The notes under the pieces were generated by a model. That model made no database searches. It saw only the letters and a list, made by a program, of their open reading frames with translations, and had not been told where the DNA came from. From positions 1-35,032 of the IMG/VR virus record IMGVR_UViG_3300025759_000301: a DNA stretch of 35,032 bases; one strand, 5' to 3'. Shown in pieces: positions 9,495-29,177 of this stretch (position 1 is its first letter; every line of letters begins with the position of its first letter). Made by a program: the position numbers and the translations under genes. This DNA is from a virus.

Positions 9495-12400
9495 TTAATT
9501 CCTTCTTTCCTTAGCGGGCCTTACGCTTCTTTCGCCATCTGGCCCCTCATAAGTTTCACCGCCACGGCTGTCTACCACAACAGTGCTTCCATCAGCTAAA
9601 GTAAGCGTAACTGTACCGCCCTCACCTTGCACTCTATCTATTACACCAGACCCGTATCGTTCTTCTATGTCTGCAACATTTATAGTGGTATCAGTTAGGT
9701 CACTGAAAATGCTCTGTGCTAACGCTGGATCTGTTATGTTGTTTAATAAATATTGTGATAGGTTGGCTAAAGAAGTTGTGCCAAGATCAGAATCAACTGC
9801 GGCAATAGCAGCAGCTATTCTGTCCATATCGGCTTGCTGCCCGGCCAATGTTGGCGCAGTTACTGGTCTTCCTTCAGCATCAACACCCGATAGCTGTCCA
9901 AGTAAACCAGCAGTGCGTAGGCGGCTTTCCAGCGTCTCTGTGCCAGCGCCCGTGTCACCCTCTTCGCGGAAGAGGCCCGTAGCGCCAGCTCTGCTCAGTG
10001 CGCGGTTCAGCGCCTCGTTCTGGAGACTGCTTTCAATGGCTTGCCGCTGAATGGTGTCTACCGTGCCTATACCCTTTCTTTCTGTATCAAACCTGCCAGT
10101 TACACCCGCCTCAGATATGCGACGAGCCAAATCCCTATCGCGTTCGTCTGCGGTCATACTGCCTTCAAAACGACCTGTTACACCAGCCCTTGCCAAATCC
10201 ATACGCAACGCTTGCTCTTGCGCTGCTAATGTATCACTAAAACCTGTAGGTGATGTTTCATCTCTAAACTGGCCCGTCAAACCTGCTCTTGTTACATCAC
10301 GACCTAATCGGCTTGTGGCTATATCTTGCGCCCCAATATCTTCTCTCAAATCTTGTGCGCGTCTTTCTATTTCCATTTGCTGGCGCAGTCGCTGCGCTGC
10401 CAGTGTATCCCTATAACCCGTAGGCGATGTGATGTCTCTAAATTGACCTGTCACATCAGCGCGTGTAACATCGCGTCCTAATGCCGTATCTAAGAGTCGA
10501 TCTGCTGCAAGGCGCTCTTCTAACGATTGACCGCGCTGTGCTATATCTATAGATGACCGTGCTTGATCAAAAGCCAACGCATCGCGTAGATCGCCCTGTC
10601 TACGCTGTGCAGCAGCAGCCTCTAATGCCAATCGGTTGCGTTCGTTGCCTTCAGCTAAACGTGACAGCGTAGCTGCCGTATCGCCGCCCCCACGCAGCAC
10701 TCCATACCGAGAAAGCTGCTCTATCAGCCCTTTTTCAGCCTCTTGCTGGCGTAGTTGCTGGTCAGCGATCTGCGATGCAAGAATCGGGTCATCAGCAGCA
10801 TCAATACGGCCTAAATATGCTTGCTCTAAACGATCTTGTAATGTTCCAGATAATTGTTTGTCTGCTTGTCTGCGTAACTTTTCTGCGCCTCTGTTGTAGC
10901 GCGACCCACGGGCAGCGAATGTCTCAAGACCTTCATCTTGATCATCTCCTATTTCATCTAACCCTACGGCATTGGGATTAAACTGAGACGCGCCAGCAAA
11001 TGTTCGCAAACCAGTATTAGGGTCAACAGTAAACGACAAGTCAGCGTCTTCTGCTGTATATGTCGTTAAGTCACTGCCCTGCCTTGCAGCCATATCCGAT
11101 TGTTCGCGTAATTGCTTTTCAAGGTCTTGGTCAACATCAAACCTTTCAAGAATTTCGGGTGGTTCAAATAGGGTTTTACCTGTGCTTACATTACGGTAAT
11201 CATCTGCGGTTCTTATTTGTCTTACAGGCTGTCTACTCCTTAAAGTTTCGGCAAGCCTGTTGTTGAATTGTAAATTCATACGATCTTCTATCGCTTGCTG
11301 GGCTGCTCTTTCTTGTGCTTCAGCAGCTTCCCTTGCTTGACGTTCTTGGGCCAGTCTTTCATCACGCGCTGTTAATTCTCCACTAAGTATACGAGCATAA
11401 TCGTCAGCAGTGACTTTATCAGCGTCTATCGCTTCCCGTATGGCCTGTGTTTCGCCCCGTAGAATATTTTGATAATCGTCTGCTGTCATGCGGTCTTGAT
11501 TAATCGCGCTGGTTATACGATCTTCCGCACCACTGAGCAACCTATTGTAATCGTCTGCCGTAACTATGGAATCTCGAATACCCTGTGTCTCACCCCGTAG
11601 AATATTCCGGTAGTCATCTGCGGTCATTCTACCTTGATTTACCGCCTCGACAATACGATCACTTTGACCGCTAAGTAGCCTGTTATAATCGTCCGCTGTA
11701 ACTATGGCATCTCGGATACCTTGAGTTTCGCCGCGCAAGATATTTTGGTAATCATCGGCGGTCATCCGATCTGCATTAATCGCGCTTGTTATGCGATCTT
11801 CCGCTCCACTAAGCAACCTGTTATAGTCATCCGCTGTGACTATTGAATCTCTTATTCCTTGCGTTTCACCTCGCAACATGCTCTGATAGTCATCTGCGGT
11901 CATTCTGCCTTGATTTATTGCATCTACAATGCGATCACCTTGACCGCTAAGTAGCCTATTGTAATCGTCCGCTGTAACTATGGAATCTCGGATACCCTGT
12001 GTCTCACCGCGCAGAATATTCCGATAGTCATCTGCGGTCATTGTTGGCCGAGGAGTCTCAACCTGTGGAGTACTTGTCCCACTTGCATAAGGATCAAATA
12101 CCGTAGGTGTGTCTCTTGGCGTTACAACTGGAACTTCTGTAGACCTACCAGTAGGAGTAACTGTATCGTCAAAAGTATTATTGGGGGTACTTGTTCCGCT
12201 TGCGTAAGGATCGAACACCGTAGGTCGAGGAGTCTCAACCTTTGGAGTACTTGTTCCGCTTGCATAGGGATCAAAAGGAGCAGATCGAGTTTCGGTTCTC
12301 GGAGTACTTGTCCCACTTGCATAAGGATCAAACACCGTAGGTATGTCCCTTGGTGTTGCAATTGAAACTTCTGTAGATCTACCAGTAGGTGTTACAGTAT

Positions 12401-12971
12401 CATTAAATGGTTGGTTTGCTGGACGATTGCCACTGCCCGTCATGCTGAAATAATCACTCGCGCTCATTTGCGGCTGAACGCCCGTGATTCCGCTATTCAT
12501 CTGAGACGCTTGCCTATACTGCTCTGGGGTCATATTGCCCTGCGGCAACACCCGTGTTTGACTTGGCGCAGGTGTAGTTACGCCACCGCTTGAGAGCGCG
12601 AAATAATCATTTGCTGACATGGGCGGCGGCGGTGGAGGCGGCGGCGGTTGATTAAATGGGACAGGGCCTCCGCTGGCCGTCTTGCCCTGCGTCTGCTCTT
12701 GGAACGCACCAGAGGCGTTCGTGTTTATGCCCGTTGGCGTAATTGTATCATTGAAGCCGCCACCCGTTGAGCCACCTGCTATGGCTGACACCAACGGATC
12801 TTGCGGAGGCTGGTTGGCTGGTTTGTTTCCAAACGGGTTGGTGTAGCGCTGTGGCGCTGACCGCTGTGATGACCGTGCCGCTGCGGCGGCGGCATAGGGG
12901 TCTGTGTATCGGGTCGTGCGTCGTCTATTCCTTGATGTACTGCCCCCCGCAAATTCTCTACTAAATGCCAT
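9495..12971 (-). CDS. Giant repeat-built virion protein
   Basis: An 1158-residue protein made largely of repeats, with no recognised enzyme domain. In order: a low-complexity N-terminus with a nine-proline run and MSA(N/S)DYF elements; four copies of FDPYASGTSTP; four and a half units of about 46 residues built on MTADDY-x-LRGETQGIRD and VTADDYNRLLSG (about residues 310-530); a charged coiled coil; and a C-terminal part with at least five (R/E)AGVTGRF-like elements and two RDxTSPTGxxDTLAAQ elements. It overlaps the tail-tube gene by one base and precedes the ejection proteins, so it is probably a structural, perhaps internal or tail-linked, protein. The repeats look like evenly spaced docking sites. 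The whole is predicted to be extended and partly disordered. Confidence 0.85.
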   Translation of the reverse strand: MAFSREFAGGSTSRNRRRTTRYTDPYAAAAAARSSQRSAPQRYTNPFGNKPANQPPQDPLVSAIAGGSTGGGFNDTITPTGINTNASGAFQEQTQGKTASGGPVPFNQPPPPPPPPPMSANDYFALSSGGVTTPAPSQTRVLPQGNMTPEQYRQASQMNSGITGVQPQMSASDYFSMTGSGNRPANQPFNDTVTPTGRSTEVSIATPRDIPTVFDPYASGTSTPRTETRSAPFDPYASGTSTPKVETPRPTVFDPYASGTSTPNNTFDDTVTPTGRSTEVPVVTPRDTPTVFDPYASGTSTPQVETPRPTMTADDYRNILRGETQGIRDSIVTADDYNRLLSGQGDRIVDAINQGRMTADDYQSMLRGETQGIRDSIVTADDYNRLLSGAEDRITSAINADRMTADDYQNILRGETQGIRDAIVTADDYNRLLSGQSDRIVEAVNQGRMTADDYRNILRGETQGIRDSIVTADDYNRLLSGAEDRITSAINQDRMTADDYQNILRGETQAIREAIDADKVTADDYARILSGELTARDERLAQERQAREAAEAQERAAQQAIEDRMNLQFNNRLAETLRSRQPVRQIRTADDYRNVSTGKTLFEPPEILERFDVDQDLEKQLREQSDMAARQGSDLTTYTAEDADLSFTVDPNTGLRTFAGASQFNPNAVGLDEIGDDQDEGLETFAARGSRYNRGAEKLRRQADKQLSGTLQDRLEQAYLGRIDAADDPILASQIADQQLRQQEAEKGLIEQLSRYGVLRGGGDTAATLSRLAEGNERNRLALEAAAAQRRQGDLRDALAFDQARSSIDIAQRGQSLEERLAADRLLDTALGRDVTRADVTGQFRDITSPTGYRDTLAAQRLRQQMEIERRAQDLREDIGAQDIATSRLGRDVTRAGLTGQFRDETSPTGFSDTLAAQEQALRMDLARAGVTGRFEGSMTADERDRDLARRISEAGVTGRFDTERKGIGTVDTIQRQAIESSLQNEALNRALSRAGATGLFREEGDTGAGTETLESRLRTAGLLGQLSGVDAEGRPVTAPTLAGQQADMDRIAAAIAAVDSDLGTTSLANLSQYLLNNITDPALAQSIFSDLTDTTINVADIEERYGSGVIDRVQGEGGTVTLTLADGSTVVVDSRGGETYEGPDGERSVRPAKERRN
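11385..12045 (-). repeat. 138-bp in-frame tandem repeats
   Basis: Within the giant virion protein gene a unit of about 138 bases (46 codons) occurs four times and then continues as degenerate half units. The units alternate between two flavours, with tails GQxDRIV(D/E)A(I/V)NQGR and GAEDRITSAIN(A/Q)DR. This points to duplication of a double unit (about 276 bases). Synonymous differences between units show that the array is not recent. Confidence 0.85.
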
Positions 12972-24947: not shown

Positions 24948-24963
24948 GTGCACATCTGTGCAC
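24948..24963. promoter_or_regulatory. Tandem GTGCAC palindromes
   Basis: Two GTGCAC palindromes start at 24948 and 24958, exactly 10 bases (one helical turn) apart, within TGTGCACATCTGTGCACC. A third GTGCAC is at 24822-24827. They lie about 50 bases upstream of the promoter of the AAA+ ATPase gene and may bind a dimeric regulator. Confidence 0.45.
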
Positions 24964-25013
24964 CTAACGCCCACGCGCCCGCATTTATAGCCATATTTAT
25001 ATGTATTAATTGC

Positions 25014-25042
25014 TTGCATCTTGCTATATATCTATATATATT
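25014..25042 (+). promoter_or_regulatory. Early promoter for the AAA+ operon
   Basis: TTGCAT (25014-25019), a 17-base spacer and TATATT (25037-25042). The predicted start is near 25049, giving a leader of about 58 bases. The same TATATT with a 17-base spacer recurs at the two other early promoters in this window. Confidence 0.6.
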
Positions 25043-25106
25043 ATCTATGTCGAGCGCACGAGGCGCCCGCATTCACTTTTCACTTTTTACGATGGAGTTA
25101 CATATT

Positions 25107-26444
25107 ATGAGCCGCAATTCTTGGTCGAGCCTATGCCAGCACGACGGGTGTACCGAACAAGCAACGAAAGAGGGTAAGGCCGACGGCGTCGGCGCGGGTA
25201 ACGAGGGGTACTATTGCAATAGGCACTATATGCAAAAATACCGTGACCACAAACGCGCCCTTGCTGAGGGAGTACCCGCCGACGAGGAAACGACGACGAC
25301 GACGACGGACGCCGCCGAAACGGCGCACGAGGCGCCCGAACAGACGCCCGAACAGGCGCCCGCAACGTCGGATCCGACGCCCGCGACGCCGCCCACCAAC
25401 GACGCCACAATAGGCGCCGTAGATACAATTCTTAGCGGCGCGGGTTACGATACTTATACCGACGTCGTAACTCAGCGCAATGACTGGATAGCTAACGCCG
25501 CCGCCGCCGCCGCCGAAAATAACGGCGCGACGTTCAGCAACCCAAAAATTGACACGCCCAACGACGACGGCATAGTTGAGCGCCTAAAAGAAATCAGCGA
25601 CGACAACCCGCCGCACGAGGTTTTCTATTCGCTTTTCAAATGGTTGTCACTTGGCGAAAACGTTGCGCTCATTGGCCCGGCGGGTAGCGGCAAAACAAGC
25701 GCCGTACGCGCCGCCGCTGATCTGTTAGGTCTTGACTATTACAGTGTCGGCGCTTGCCAGACGCCGTATGAGCTAACCGGATTTATTTCCGCAAGTGGAG
25801 ATCGGGTGGAGACTTCTTTCTCACGATTCTGTCAGAACGGCGGCGTGTTTTTGTTCGATGAGGTAGATGGTAGCTCACCCAAAGCATTAACGGTATTACA
25901 TGAGGCGCTCGACAACCGACGCCTAACGCTACCCGGCGGCGAGTCGATAGAATTACACCCCTCGTGTTTAATCGTCGCGTCGGCAAACACGTGGGGGCGG
26001 GGCGCTGACCGTACGTATGTCGGACGTAACGCGCTTGACGGCGCGACGCTCGACCGATTTGTACAATTAGCTATGAACTACGACGAGGTATTCGAGTCAG
26101 CCATTTTAGGCGTCGAGCCCGACGCCGAAACGGTAAACGAGCGTGAACGGCGCATTAAAAAGGTTATGCGCCGTCGGTCTAATGTATCAGACGATACCCG
26201 CCGCGCTGACCGTACTGAGTTTATCGGCAATATGCGCCGTATCCGTCGCGCTGTCGAGGAGTTAAACATTAACCATGTCGTTGGTATGCGGGCGGGGCGT
26301 CGCATAGTCAAGCTGATCGAGGGTGGGTATCGAGTAACGTCTGACGACATAAAACTAATCTGCGGCGCGGGTATCGACGACGGAACATGGCGCCGTATAG
26401 GTGAGCATATCGTAACTGGTAGCGAAAATAACGAGGTGCAATAA
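25107..26444 (+). CDS. MoxR/CobS-like AAA+ ATPase with N-terminal zinc finger
   Basis: A 445-residue protein from the ATG at 25107, which has GGAG 10 bases upstream; a longer frame to 24948 would cross the promoter. Residues 10-40 hold Cys10, Cys15, Cys37 and His40, a likely zinc finger. A Thr/Glu/Pro/Ala linker follows (60-100). The ATPase core has Walker A GPAGSGKT (190-197), Walker B GVFLFDEVDG with Asp251/Glu252, sensor 1 SANT (Asn294) and an arginine finger LDRF (318). This is the MoxR/CobS type, which remodels a partner protein often encoded next door. The following gene fits that role and overlaps by one base. Base composition is unlike the rest of the window (GCG/GCC and CGACG words), suggesting transfer. 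Confidence 0.88.
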   Translation: MSRNSWSSLCQHDGCTEQATKEGKADGVGAGNEGYYCNRHYMQKYRDHKRALAEGVPADEETTTTTTDAAETAHEAPEQTPEQAPATSDPTPATPPTNDATIGAVDTILSGAGYDTYTDVVTQRNDWIANAAAAAAENNGATFSNPKIDTPNDDGIVERLKEISDDNPPHEVFYSLFKWLSLGENVALIGPAGSGKTSAVRAAADLLGLDYYSVGACQTPYELTGFISASGDRVETSFSRFCQNGGVFLFDEVDGSSPKALTVLHEALDNRRLTLPGGESIELHPSCLIVASANTWGRGADRTYVGRNALDGATLDRFVQLAMNYDEVFESAILGVEPDAETVNERERRIKKVMRRRSNVSDDTRRADRTEFIGNMRRIRRAVEELNINHVVGMRAGRRIVKLIEGGYRVTSDDIKLICGAGIDDGTWRRIGEHIVTGSENNEVQ

Positions 26445-27253
26445 TGGCGCGTAAAATAATACAGGCGTCGTACGGTTACGACGAGTTACTCGACTATATC
26501 GAAACGGCGCCCCGTAACTGGGAACAAGACTCGTCGGTCAGTAATACGGCGTCGGAGTCTTGGGATCTGGGCGCGGGTTACGATGGCGCTTTACAGCTTG
26601 CTCGTTTTGGTTGGTCGGCGGGGCGTGAGCAGTTACTCGACGCGACGGGCGCCGCAAATAAATCTTGGAGTAACTGCGGCGTCGAGCTAGTGCACGACGT
26701 CGTCGGCGCGGCGCCGGACGTCGGCGCGTATCTGATGGGCGATCCGTACAATATGCTAGCTCTTGACGACGAGGCGCCCGCGCCCGTTGTCAGTATAGCT
26801 GTTCCGGTTGCTATGTCGTGCAATGTTAACGCCCGCTCGTTTGTTAATGCGGGCGCGGGTATCTTGTCGGCGTGTCAAGCACTAGAGGCGGCGGGCTATA
26901 GTGTAGAAATACGGGCGTATATGGGCGCCGTCCGTCGTCAAAAAAGCGCGCTATTAAATGAGGTAACTATAAAGCGGGCGGGCGGCGTTATCGACTACGA
27001 TGCCGTCGCGTTTGCACTAACCCACCCGGCCATGTGTCGTCGGTTACAGTTTGCATGGTGTGAAACGCTACCCGCCGACGTCGAGCCGGATTATTATGGA
27101 TATGGTCAAGCGCCCGACTTTGAACAGTTATTAGATGAGGCCAATATTAGCGCTGATATAATACTACCAACGGTCGACCATGTCCCGACGCCCGCCGACG
27201 GACTACGGCGGGTAGTCGAGGCGTCCAATGGACTGCTTGACGATATAGCATAG
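26444..27253 (+). CDS. Partner of the AAA+ ATPase (DUF7192-like)
   Basis: A 269-residue protein. Residues 35-70 (ESWDLGAGYDGALQLARFGW) and the later strands APAPVVSIAVPVAMSCNVNA, with NAGAGILSACQALEAAGYSV and VEIRAYMG, match my memory of phage proteins of the DUF7192 family, found beside MoxR/CobS-like ATPases. The core resembles a Rossmann-like domain, and the pair recalls MoxR with a von Willebrand A partner, but no MIDAS motif is seen. It overlaps the ATPase gene (ATAATGG) and has the same unusual composition. Its stop codon TAG begins the first hammerhead ribozyme. Confidence 0.75.
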   Translation: MARKIIQASYGYDELLDYIETAPRNWEQDSSVSNTASESWDLGAGYDGALQLARFGWSAGREQLLDATGAANKSWSNCGVELVHDVVGAAPDVGAYLMGDPYNMLALDDEAPAPVVSIAVPVAMSCNVNARSFVNAGAGILSACQALEAAGYSVEIRAYMGAVRRQKSALLNEVTIKRAGGVIDYDAVAFALTHPAMCRRLQFAWCETLPADVEPDYYGYGQAPDFEQLLDEANISADIILPTVDHVPTPADGLRRVVEASNGLLDDIA

Positions 27254-27329
27254 TCGAAACGCCGCCGTAGCGCCCCGTTGGGGTGTTGCGGGGCGTCCGG
27301 TTGGGGTAGCCACCCGCCGCTGACGAGAC
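27253..27329 (+). ncRNA. Type II hammerhead ribozyme 1
   Basis: All core elements are present in circular order for a type II fold. Stem II is GTC (27253-27255) with GAC (27327-27329), including the usual G-C closing pair. The core is GAA (27256-27258) plus A27259 and CTGACGA (27320-27326). Stem III is ACGCC (27259-27263) with GGCGT (27292-27296), extended by CCGTAGCGCCCC/GGGGTGTTGCGG with one bulged G and a three-base loop. The cleavage triplet is GTC, so cutting is expected after C27297. Stem I is CGGT (27298-27301) with GCCG (27316-27319), topped by TGG/CCA. The G of the upstream TAG stop forms part of stem II. Confidence 0.88.
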
Positions 27330-27338
27330 CGGCTGACG

Positions 27339-27384: not shown

Positions 27385-27573
27385 ATGAGTAACGAAACGA
27401 CGAGCGATAGCACAACGGGCGGCGCCGTGGTCACATTAACCGACGCCGATATAGTTACAATCTGCAATGCATTAGGGCATCATATAGCCGATAGAAACGA
27501 GTTAAACGCAATGATCGGCAAGCTATGCCACGGGCGCCGTATCCGTATACCGTCTGATCTAGGCATGGACTAA
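27385..27573 (+). CDS. Small protein of 62 aa, unknown
   Basis: It starts with ATG at 27385 after AGGGG with normal spacing. The first 15 residues are Ser/Thr-rich; the rest (LTDADIVTICNALGHHIADR, then a short basic end HGRRIRIPSDLG) looks like one or two helices. It shares the GC-rich codon style of the ATPase pair and is the first gene downstream of ribozyme 1. No family is recognised. Confidence 0.65.
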   Translation: MSNETTSDSTTGGAVVTLTDADIVTICNALGHHIADRNELNAMIGKLCHGRRIRIPSDLGMD

Positions 27574-27601
27574 CGCCCGCTGTAACCCGCCCCAACCAGT
27601 T

Positions 27602-27639
27602 ACAAACGCCCCGTCTGAGTTTATCGGCGGGGCGTTTGT
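27602..27639 (+). terminator. Strong hairpin, likely terminator
   Basis: ACAAACGCCCCG (27602-27613) pairs with CGGGGCGTTTGT (27628-27639), 12 perfect pairs with a 14-base loop. The T-rich tail is weak. It ends the GC-rich operon segment and can fold from either strand. Confidence 0.6.
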
Positions 27640-27720
27640 GTGTTCGCCTATGCGCCCGCCCGCGCCGCCTCGCTTGTAACTGGCTACAATGCGCCCTTGT
27701 AACTGGCGTGTAACTGGCTC

Positions 27721-27841
27721 GATTGCGTTTGATTGGCTTTGATTGGCTTTGATTGCACTCAACTTGATTACACCCAGTTGATTAGATTAGCCTTTGATTA
27801 GCCTTTGATTGGGGTTGATTAGATTAGATTAGATTAGATTA
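27721..27841 (+). repeat. TTGATT-type iterons and GATTA tandem repeat
   Basis: About nine TTGATT(G/A) units occur between 27721 and 27820, including TTGATTGCACTC at 27749-27760, followed by five perfect GATTA copies (27817-27841). The array ends 9 bases before the -35 element of the next promoter. Together with the terminator it makes up the 27574-27921 gene-free stretch. Confidence 0.8.
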
Positions 27842-27850
27842 AACTTTTCC

Positions 27851-27879
27851 TTGACACCCTTTTGATTAGCTATTATATT
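27851..27879 (+). promoter_or_regulatory. Consensus promoter
   Basis: Perfect TTGACA (27851-27856), 17-base spacer and TATATT (27874-27879). Start near 27886, about 36 bases before the ATG of the next gene. It drives the 27922-29114 genes. Confidence 0.75.
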
Positions 27880-28188: not shown

Positions 28189-28562
28189 TGCGAAACCTAA
28201 AAAATCAGTTGATTGAGAATGTTGATGAATTCGTTGAACAGCACGGCGATTTGTCTGGATTTGTATTACTGGCGATGGGGAAATGTAATGATGGGGGCAA
28301 TGGCAAATGTCTGGGCATGGTTGACGGCACAGGCGCACAGATACATATGTTACTGTGTCAGTTACTCGACAACGACCCGACTATATTTTCGGGGTTGATG
28401 TTTGAGTTACTGAAACGCAAGTGCCGCGATAGTGATATGTTTGACCAACTTGTTGATCATATGCCGGAATGGGATGTGGATGAGGATTCGACTCAGCGCC
28501 TTTATACGCTTGATGATATTGTAAACACACTAAAAAATATGGGAGATGAAAACGATGGATAA
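28188..28562 (+). CDS. Acidic helical protein, unknown
   Basis: A 124-residue protein with a strong GGAGG ribosome site before the ATG at 28188. It is acidic and predicted helical; GFVLLAMGKCNDGGNGKCLG is a loop with two cysteines. No domain is recognised. It lies in the small-gene operon between the two ribozymes and overlaps the next gene. Confidence 0.72.
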   Translation: MRNLKNQLIENVDEFVEQHGDLSGFVLLAMGKCNDGGNGKCLGMVDGTGAQIHMLLCQLLDNDPTIFSGLMFELLKRKCRDSDMFDQLVDHMPEWDVDEDSTQRLYTLDDIVNTLKNMGDENDG

Positions 28563-28770
28563 TAATAACGTGGTTACAAACTCAGTTACAGCCCGCGAGT
28601 TTCCAGTTGAAGCGTTTTACGGTTCGATTATGATGCGCGACAATGGGGTATATATGTTAGATGATGACGGAAACGTGCGGCAGTTTATCGCACTGGCTGA
28701 CGCTATGGCCTACAGGGCATGGCTGTGGCCCGATGTATATAAGATTGATAGGGAGGTAGCCGCCGCATAG
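28555..28770 (+). CDS. Small protein upstream of ribozyme 2
   Basis: A 71-residue protein. I choose ATG 28555, which has GGGAG at a good distance, over ATG 28546. It has an Asn-rich start, then FYGSIMMRDNGVYMLDDDGN and an aromatic helix (MAYRAWLWPDVYKI). Function unknown. Its last codons are GCC GCA TAG, and the stop begins the second ribozyme, as with the DUF7192-like gene. Confidence 0.72.
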   Translation: MDNNNVVTNSVTAREFPVEAFYGSIMMRDNGVYMLDDDGNVRQFIALADAMAYRAWLWPDVYKIDREVAAA

Positions 28771-28825
28771 TCGAAACGCCCTACGGGGCGTCTGCGTTGG
28801 ATTGACCACCGCGCACTGACGAGAC
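28770..28825 (+). ncRNA. Type II hammerhead ribozyme 2
   Basis: A compact second copy. Stem II is GTC (28770-28772) with GAC (28823-28825). The core is GAA (28773-28775), A28776 and CTGACGA (28816-28822). Stem III is ACGCCC (28776-28781) with GGGCGT (28786-28791), closed by a TACG tetraloop. The cleavage triplet is GTC with cutting expected after C28792. Stem I is TGCGT (28793-28797) with GCGCA (28811-28815), topped by TGG/CCA (28798-28800, 28806-28808). Compared with ribozyme 1, stems I and III differ in sequence but keep pairing, which is covariation support. Confidence 0.9.
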
Positions 28826-28859
28826 AGGTCACACACTCAAAACGAGAGGGGAATATGTA

Positions 28860-29114
28860 ATGGAAGTCGAGTTTATCAATAAAGAGCAGGATTGGGCTAA
28901 CGAGACTACCCGCTACTGGTTTATAGTATTGGATAGATGCCCGCCGCATGATAGTTACTGCATTGCTGATTGCAACGGAGAAACCACCTTATTGGATCGT
29001 GACGGGTTTCCTCTGCACCGCGAGGATGACCCCATGATGCAGGGCAATTCTTCGGATCGGGAAATATACAACGCATTGATTAACGAATTATCGCTTTATA
29101 CGTTCGACGACTAA
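28860..29114 (+). CDS. Small protein downstream of ribozyme 2
   Basis: An 84-residue acidic protein starting at ATG 28860 with AGAGGGG upstream. It has paired Cys (CPPHDSYCIADC) and an acidic helical end. No family is recognised. It is the last gene before the terminator at 29138. Confidence 0.7.
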   Translation: MEVEFINKEQDWANETTRYWFIVLDRCPPHDSYCIADCNGETTLLDRDGFPLHREDDPMMQGNSSDREIYNALINELSLYTFDD

Positions 29115-29137
29115 AACAGCCCGACAGTTACAAGCGA

Positions 29138-29177
29138 CCCCTCGGCCAGTTACTCTGGTTCGGGGGGTTTCTTTTTT
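29138..29177 (+). terminator. Intrinsic terminator of the early small-gene operon
   Basis: CCCCTCGGCCAG-type left arm (29138-29149) pairs with CTGGTTCGGGGGG (29155-29167), with one bulged C and G-U pairs. TTTCTTTTTT follows (29168-29177). The hairpin overlaps the last codons of the convergent minus-strand gene. Confidence 0.8.

What the first reader, a model, noticed from the sequence alone, without database searches (positions are those of the whole stretch)
27253..27329. Complete type II hammerhead ribozyme starting at a stop codon
Seen: every invariant hammerhead position is present (CTGACGA, GAAA, GTC before the cut site, G-C closing pair of stem II). Stem III has 17 pairs around one bulged G, and stem I has an internal bulge for tertiary contact. 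The open helix is stem II, which defines type II. Known: hammerheads of this consensus self-cleave. Inference: RNA is cut after 27297, separating the AAA+/DUF7192-like message from the following gene.
Basis: partly seen in the sequence, partly recalled or inferred. Interest (0 to 1): 0.92.

Follow-up and report, generated by a model that had tools for sequence, protein, structure and literature searches.

The report
Phage self-cutting RNA at stop codon
This phage carries two self-cutting RNA elements of a known kind (type II hammerhead ribozymes), each starting on the stop codon of one gene just before the next, and a survey of related viral sequences shows that this placement is the rule, which suggests that they split phage messages into separate gene units.

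Summary
The element at 27253-27335 has every invariant hammerhead position, a 17-pair stem III with one bulged G, and an open stem II whose first base is the G of the UAG stop codon. Rfam Hammerhead_II scores it 29.9 bits. That is below the curated cut-off of 37, but no other family matches.

Stem I's loop pairs with the 3' tail in a 5-bp pseudoknot (27307-27311/27331-27335), the standard tertiary contact of type II hammerheads. A second hammerhead (28770-28831, 39.4 bits, above cut-off) lies on the UAG of another gene. An 85%-identical relative keeps the first ribozyme at the same place but lacks the second together with its downstream gene.

Among 135 stem-checked matches in viral contigs, 114 (84%) have a stop codon of a >=40-codon ORF 0-12 nt upstream, against 5% at random positions. 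The stop's last base covaries with its stem II partner. In bacterial genomes the figure is 19/37, against 4/92 for decoys lacking stems.

Likely role: co-transcriptional cleavage at gene junctions, freeing each operon's last small gene. Cleavage was not tested. The family, pseudoknot and phage gene-flanking arrays are known (Perreault 2011). The stop-codon rule appears undescribed in the papers I could read and gives a test of an open question.

The parts
27253..27335 (+). Type II hammerhead ribozyme #1, including the pseudoknot tail; predicted cut between C27297 and C27298
   Evidence: Rfam RF02276 29.9 bits; pair-by-pair check
27251..27253 (+). UAG stop of the DUF7192 gene; its G is position 11.3 of stem II (pairs with C27329)
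27259..27296 (+). Stem III, 17 pairs with bulged G27264; would be the 3'-terminal hairpin of the upstream product
27298..27319 (+). Stem I and loop I; loop UAGCC 27307-27311 is the 5' strand of the pseudoknot
27331..27335 (+). Pseudoknot 3' strand GGCUG
28770..28831 (+). Type II hammerhead ribozyme #2; stem II 28770-28772/28823-28825, stem III 28776-28791, cut after C28792, stem I 28793-28815, core 28816-28822, pseudoknot 28803-28807/28827-28831
   Evidence: Rfam RF02276 39.4 bits, above the gathering score
28768..28770 (+). UAG stop of ORF 28546-28770; its G is position 11.3 of ribozyme #2
24948..26444 (+). AAA+ (AAA_5, phrog_249) gene upstream of ribozyme #1
26444..27253 (+). DUF7192 (PF23822, phrog_1909) gene ending on ribozyme #1
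27385..27573 (+). 62-aa ORF downstream of ribozyme #1, kept in relative L122; likely last gene of its operon
27606..27645 (+). Probable intrinsic terminator (ACGCCCCG...CGGGGCGT then U-rich) ending the operon with ribozyme #1
   Evidence: read directly; the loop is longer than the scan allows, so it is not; shares CAGTTACAARCGMCCC with the other terminator
27851..27879 (+). Strong sigma-70-like promoter of the next operon (11 of 12 matches)
28546..28770 (+). 74-aa ORF ending on ribozyme #2
28860..29114 (+). 84-aa ORF downstream of ribozyme #2, last before the terminator; absent from L122 together with the ribozyme
29125..29176 (+). Probable intrinsic terminator of the operon with ribozyme #2

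Best explanation
Both elements are type II hammerhead ribozymes of a tailed phage. When the operon is transcribed, the RNA folds stem III, stem I, a 3-bp open stem II and the loop I/tail pseudoknot, and cuts itself after C27297 (and after C28792 in the second copy). The upstream product ends at the stop codon plus a stem III hairpin with a 2',3'-cyclic phosphate; the downstream product starts with a 5'-hydroxyl and the stem I hairpin, followed closely by the next gene's ribosome-binding site. In this phage each ribozyme separates the last small gene of an operon from the genes before it. I think the use is to give the two parts separate, structurally capped mRNA ends, so that decay and translation of one gene no longer depend on its neighbour. 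Shown: anatomy, family, placement, conservation of copy #1. Inferred: cleavage, end protection and insulation.
For: Rfam model matches for both copies. All core positions and stems present, with 5-bp pseudoknots of different sequence in the two copies: UAGCC/GGCUG and UGACC/GGUCA. In 75 long-stem-I relatives 62 can form the pseudoknot, against 19.6 +/- 3.3 (maximum 30 of 500) with tails swapped. The orthologue of #1 in L122 (window region 85% identical) lies at the same junction, with the G27272-U27284 pair of stem III changed to G-C. Placement: 114/135 relatives have a stop codon 0-12 nt upstream (random positions 5%), and the next start codon is a median 27 nt after stem II. Position 11.3 covaries with 10.3: G-C 88, A-U 34. 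Related prophage arrays of hammerheads self-cleave in vitro and, for A. tumefaciens, in E. coli (PMC3088659).
Against: Copy #1 scores below Rfam's gathering cut-off, and its long stem III is atypical. Its minimum-energy fold pairs the stop codon with the tail (-46.2 against -40.0 kcal/mol for the active fold before counting the pseudoknot), so part of the RNA could misfold. In L122 the pseudoknot has one mismatch (my reading). No cleavage data. A DUF7192-bearing phage that is more distant (MW202803) has no hammerhead there, so the ribozyme is not tied to that gene.
Confidence: 0.8

Rival explanations
1. Cleavage is gated by translation: a ribosome paused on the UAG covers the next dozen nucleotides (stem II, GAAA, first pairs of stem III), so the ribozyme folds and cuts only when the stop codon is free. 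The ribozyme would then read out the translation of the upstream gene.
For: The stop codon forms part of stem II and sits 0-12 nt upstream in 114/135 viral copies, more tightly than uniform placement in the intergenic space predicts (77 against 56.4 +/- 3.8 with gap <=3; in 11 long spacers 4 with gap <=3 against 0.2 expected).
Against: Tight packing plus a wish for a short 3' end explains much of the same pattern. No preferred reading phase of the gap: 0, 1, 2 and 3 nt are all common. No expression data.
Confidence: 0.15
2. Copy #1 is a decayed, slow or inactive hammerhead.
For: Below the gathering score; competing fold of lower computed energy.
Against: Every core base and all three stems intact; pseudoknot present; the relative L122 keeps core and stems, with only one mismatch in stem III (A at the position of G27267) and one in the pseudoknot.
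Confidence: 0.1
3. The two copies together release an RNA (about 1.5 kb) that could circularise, as in retrozymes or viroid-like RNAs.
For: Two direct-oriented hammerheads 1.5 kb apart.
Against: A probable terminator and a strong promoter lie between them, so they are probably on different transcripts; L122 has only one of them.
Confidence: 0.03
4. Chance resemblance.
For: Short motif.
Against: E 6.5e-6 for the family in this record, second copy, orthologue, pseudoknots, stop-codon placement shared with relatives and absent from decoys.
Confidence: 0.02

Closest known systems
Hammerhead ribozyme type II (Rfam RF02276; Perreault et al. 2011, PMC3088659)
   Same: Core, closed stems I and III, short open stem II, pseudoknot between loop I and the tail after stem II, occurrence in phage and prophage regions, several copies flanking small genes of varying identity
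   Different: Copy #1 has an unusually long stem III (17 pairs with a bulge). The exact docking on the upstream stop codon is not mentioned in that paper's main text (0 occurrences of 'stop codon')
HHphage of haloviruses HF1/HF2 (PMC3088659)
   Same: Hammerhead in a viral operon just upstream of a start codon (13 nt), with the mRNA 5' end mapped within 3 nt of the cut site
   Different: Variant core with insertions; its analogue HHmeta needs high Mg2+. Here the core is canonical and the phage looks bacterial (sigma-70-like promoter, P22-like portal)
RiboJ-type engineered insulators (from general knowledge)
   Same: Hammerhead in front of a ribosome-binding site that fixes the 5' end of the message
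   Different: Engineered, from a plant satellite RNA hammerhead, placed after a promoter and not between two genes

Membership tests
Hammerhead ribozyme type II (RF02276) | Invariant core CUGANGA, GAAA, UH at the cut site | tested here: met
   CUGACGA 27320-27326, GAAA 27256-27259, GUC 27295-27297
Hammerhead ribozyme type II (RF02276) | Stems I and III closed by loops, stem II open (type II permutation) | tested here: met
   and the alignment
Hammerhead ribozyme type II (RF02276) | Score at or above the curated gathering threshold of 37 bits (a curation cut-off, not a structural feature) | tested here: inconclusive
   Copy #1 does not reach it (29.9 bits, E 0.0028 in 3.5 kb); copy #2 does (39.4 bits). 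The low score of #1 probably reflects the long stem III insertion; no core feature fails
Hammerhead ribozyme type II (RF02276) | Loop I / 3'-tail pseudoknot of 4 or more pairs (a majority of members, PMC3088659) | tested here: met
   5 pairs in each copy; family-wide test by tail swapping
Hammerhead ribozyme type II (RF02276) | Mg2+-dependent self-cleavage leaving 2',3'-cyclic phosphate and 5'-OH | not testable with these tools
   Needs in vitro transcription or RNA-end mapping

The most novel reading that the evidence does not exclude
Phage type II hammerheads are a translation-coupled device: the ribozyme is built onto the stop codon so that a terminating ribosome controls when the polycistronic message is cut, which would make the general, unexplained class of prokaryotic hammerheads sensors of upstream translation.
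Probability: 0.15. Interest if true: 0.8.

Novelty: new member of a known kind. Interest (0 to 1): 0.5.

Why it matters
[quoted passage not shown] The rule found here (the ribozyme sits on the upstream stop codon and ends just before the next gene's ribosome-binding site, in 84% of the sampled viral copies) points to gene-junction processing of phage messages and gives simple tests: move the stop codon, kill the core, measure neighbouring genes.

Tried and rejected
Search for close relatives of the AAA+/DUF7192 to 84-aa ORF region in GenBank phages by DNA: none. Orthologues of the 84-aa ORF beyond L123: none. Hammerhead after DUF7192 in the more distant phage MW202803: none. Pseudomonas phage PaP3, named in Perreault 2011 as carrying a variant-core hammerhead: not recovered by Rfam at E<=1, so it gave no annotated control. 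A particular gene family attached to the ribozymes: rejected; flanking genes are small and diverse, with anti-restriction (phrog_7245) recurring 2-3 times. A conserved switch fold between the UAG and the tail: rejected, because the minimum-energy pairing seen in #1 is not formed by L122.

Full report
OBSERVATION. At 27251-27337 the strand reads UAGUCGAAACGCCGCC...GGGGCGUCCGGUUGGGGUAGCCACCCGCCGCUGACGAGACCGGCUGAC. Mapping it onto the hammerhead scheme and checking each pair gives stem II 27253-27255/27327-27329, GAA 27256-27258, stem III with 17 pairs around bulged G27264, GUC 27295-27297, stem I 27298-27319, and CUGACGA 27320-27326. Rfam Hammerhead_II (RF02276) matches at 29.9 bits, below its gathering score of 37, with E 0.0028 in a 3.5-kb search, 0.028 over the window against all families and 6.5e-6 for this family alone. 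No other family matches there.

(a) The loop of stem I (UAGCC 27307-27311) is complementary to the tail just after stem II (GGCUG 27331-27335). This is the pseudoknot that Perreault et al. 2011 (PMC3088659) found in most type II hammerheads and showed to be needed for fast cleavage. It is a better candidate for the tertiary contact than the stem I bulge. (b) A second type II hammerhead at 28770-28831 scores 39.4 bits, above the cut-off. It has the same start (UAG UCGAAACGCC), a different pseudoknot (UGACC/GGUCA), and also begins on the UAG of a gene (ORF 28546-28770).

SETTING. The window is a tailed-phage record (35,032 bases) with terminase, portal, head and tail-fibre genes on the minus strand. 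On the plus strand an AAA+ gene and a DUF7192 gene run into ribozyme #1, then a 62-aa ORF, then a GC-rich hairpin with a U-rich tail (read directly). A strong sigma-70-like promoter at 27851-27879 starts the next set of small ORFs, which run into ribozyme #2, then an 84-aa ORF and another terminator-like hairpin. Both terminator regions share CAGTTACAARCGMCCC. So in each operon the ribozyme separates the last small ORF from the genes before it; this reading of operon limits is inference.

CONSERVATION. One related contig (L122; 85-95% identical in blocks) keeps ribozyme #1 at the same junction with the core intact. One stem III pair (27272-27284) changes from G-U to G-C; another (27267-27289) becomes A-C. 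The tail changes from CGGCUG to AGGCCA, which costs one pseudoknot pair. The same relative lacks ribozyme #2 together with the 84-aa ORF; other small genes stand in their place. Ribozyme and downstream gene thus come and go as a unit in this one comparison.

FAMILY-WIDE TEST. After requiring stems I and III, 135 ribozymes remain, counting the window's two and the one in L122. Of these, 114 (84%) have the stop codon of an ORF of >=40 codons 0-12 nt before stem II, against 5.1% for random positions on the same strands. The median upstream gap is 3 nt and the median distance from stem II to the next plausible start is 27 nt, just enough for the pseudoknot tail and a ribosome-binding site. Placement is tighter on the stop side than uniform placement in the available space predicts: 77 with gap <=3 against 56.4 +/- 3.8 expected; in 11 long spacers, 9 within 12 nt and 4 within 3 nt against 0.2 expected for <=3. 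When the stop is flush with the motif (30 cases) its last base is stem II position 11.3, and it pairs with 10.3 in 29 of them: UAG with C 20 and with U 2, UAA with U 7.

INDEPENDENT CHECK. The same pattern in bacterial and archaeal genomes returned many chance matches, which serve as decoys. With both stems present, 19 of 37 lie 0-12 nt after a stop codon; without stems, 4 of 92. The pseudoknot can form in 62 of 75 viral copies with a long stem I region, against 19.6 +/- 3.3 when tails are swapped between sequences; copies with a short stem I region lack it (3 of 60) and have a longer stem II by eye.

LIMITS. The contig sample is capped and not corrected for shared ancestry, ORFs were called mechanically, the start-codon search needed a purine-rich motif, and the uniform-placement model reserves a fixed 22 nt for tail and ribosome-binding site. 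The main contrast (84% against 5%) is too large to come from these choices, but the finer comparison (77 against 56) does depend on them.

MECHANISM. Type II topology cuts between the two closed hairpins. The upstream message would therefore end with its stop codon, a few stem II and core nucleotides and the stem III hairpin; the downstream message would begin with a 5'-hydroxyl, the stem I hairpin and the pseudoknot strands, and then the ribosome-binding site. From general knowledge of bacterial mRNA decay, a 3' hairpin slows 3' exonucleases and a 5'-hydroxyl with a 5' hairpin is a poor substrate for 5'-end-dependent decay. I therefore favour junction processing that uncouples the fate of neighbouring genes. 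That phage transcripts are cut into operon- or gene-length pieces was proposed by Perreault et al., with cleavage of natural arrays shown in vitro and, for one, in E. coli. Translational gating by the terminating ribosome is an attractive but unproved extension.

KNOWN OR NEW. The ribozyme class, pseudoknot, phage association and gene-flanking arrays are known. A 2017 review still lists the role as open (PMC6155905). Neither paper's main text contains 'stop codon', and my literature searches found no report of the stop-codon docking; the library lacks most subscription journals and preprints, so this is weak evidence of novelty. Verdict: a confirmed new member of a known kind, with a family-wide placement rule worth testing.

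Noticed in passing
window 27728-27869: Cluster of TTGATTRG repeats (7 of the 10 in the window, all on the + strand; 2.2 expected in the whole window) just upstream of and overlapping the strong promoter at 27851; looks like operator or origin iterons; a similar TTGATT-rich stretch is present in L122.
   Followed up: partly
window 27597-27612 and 29125-29140: Both terminator-like regions start with the same CAGTTACAARCGMCCC sequence (none expected by chance), suggesting shared or exchanged 3' ends between the two operons.
   Followed up: no
window 28760-29117 compared with L122:6300-6895 and L123:100-610: Accessory-gene hotspot: the ribozyme #2 and 84-aa ORF segment is replaced by other small genes in L122, and L123 (otherwise 100% identical nearby) carries extra small genes before the same terminator.
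   Followed up: partly
window 11444-12042: Imperfect 138/276-bp tandem repeats inside the large minus-strand gene 9495-12971, a repetitive virion-region protein.
   Followed up: no
L073:4465-6698, L130, L119, L025: Records with three or four hammerheads spaced a few hundred to about 1,600 bases apart, most of them after a short ORF: arrays in which small genes would be cut out singly or in small groups.
   Followed up: no
60 of 135 viral copies: A second structural subclass without the pseudoknot: short stem I loop (GUNAnGC-like) and a longer stem II, tail often CAA/UCA; seems to use another tertiary contact.
   Followed up: partly
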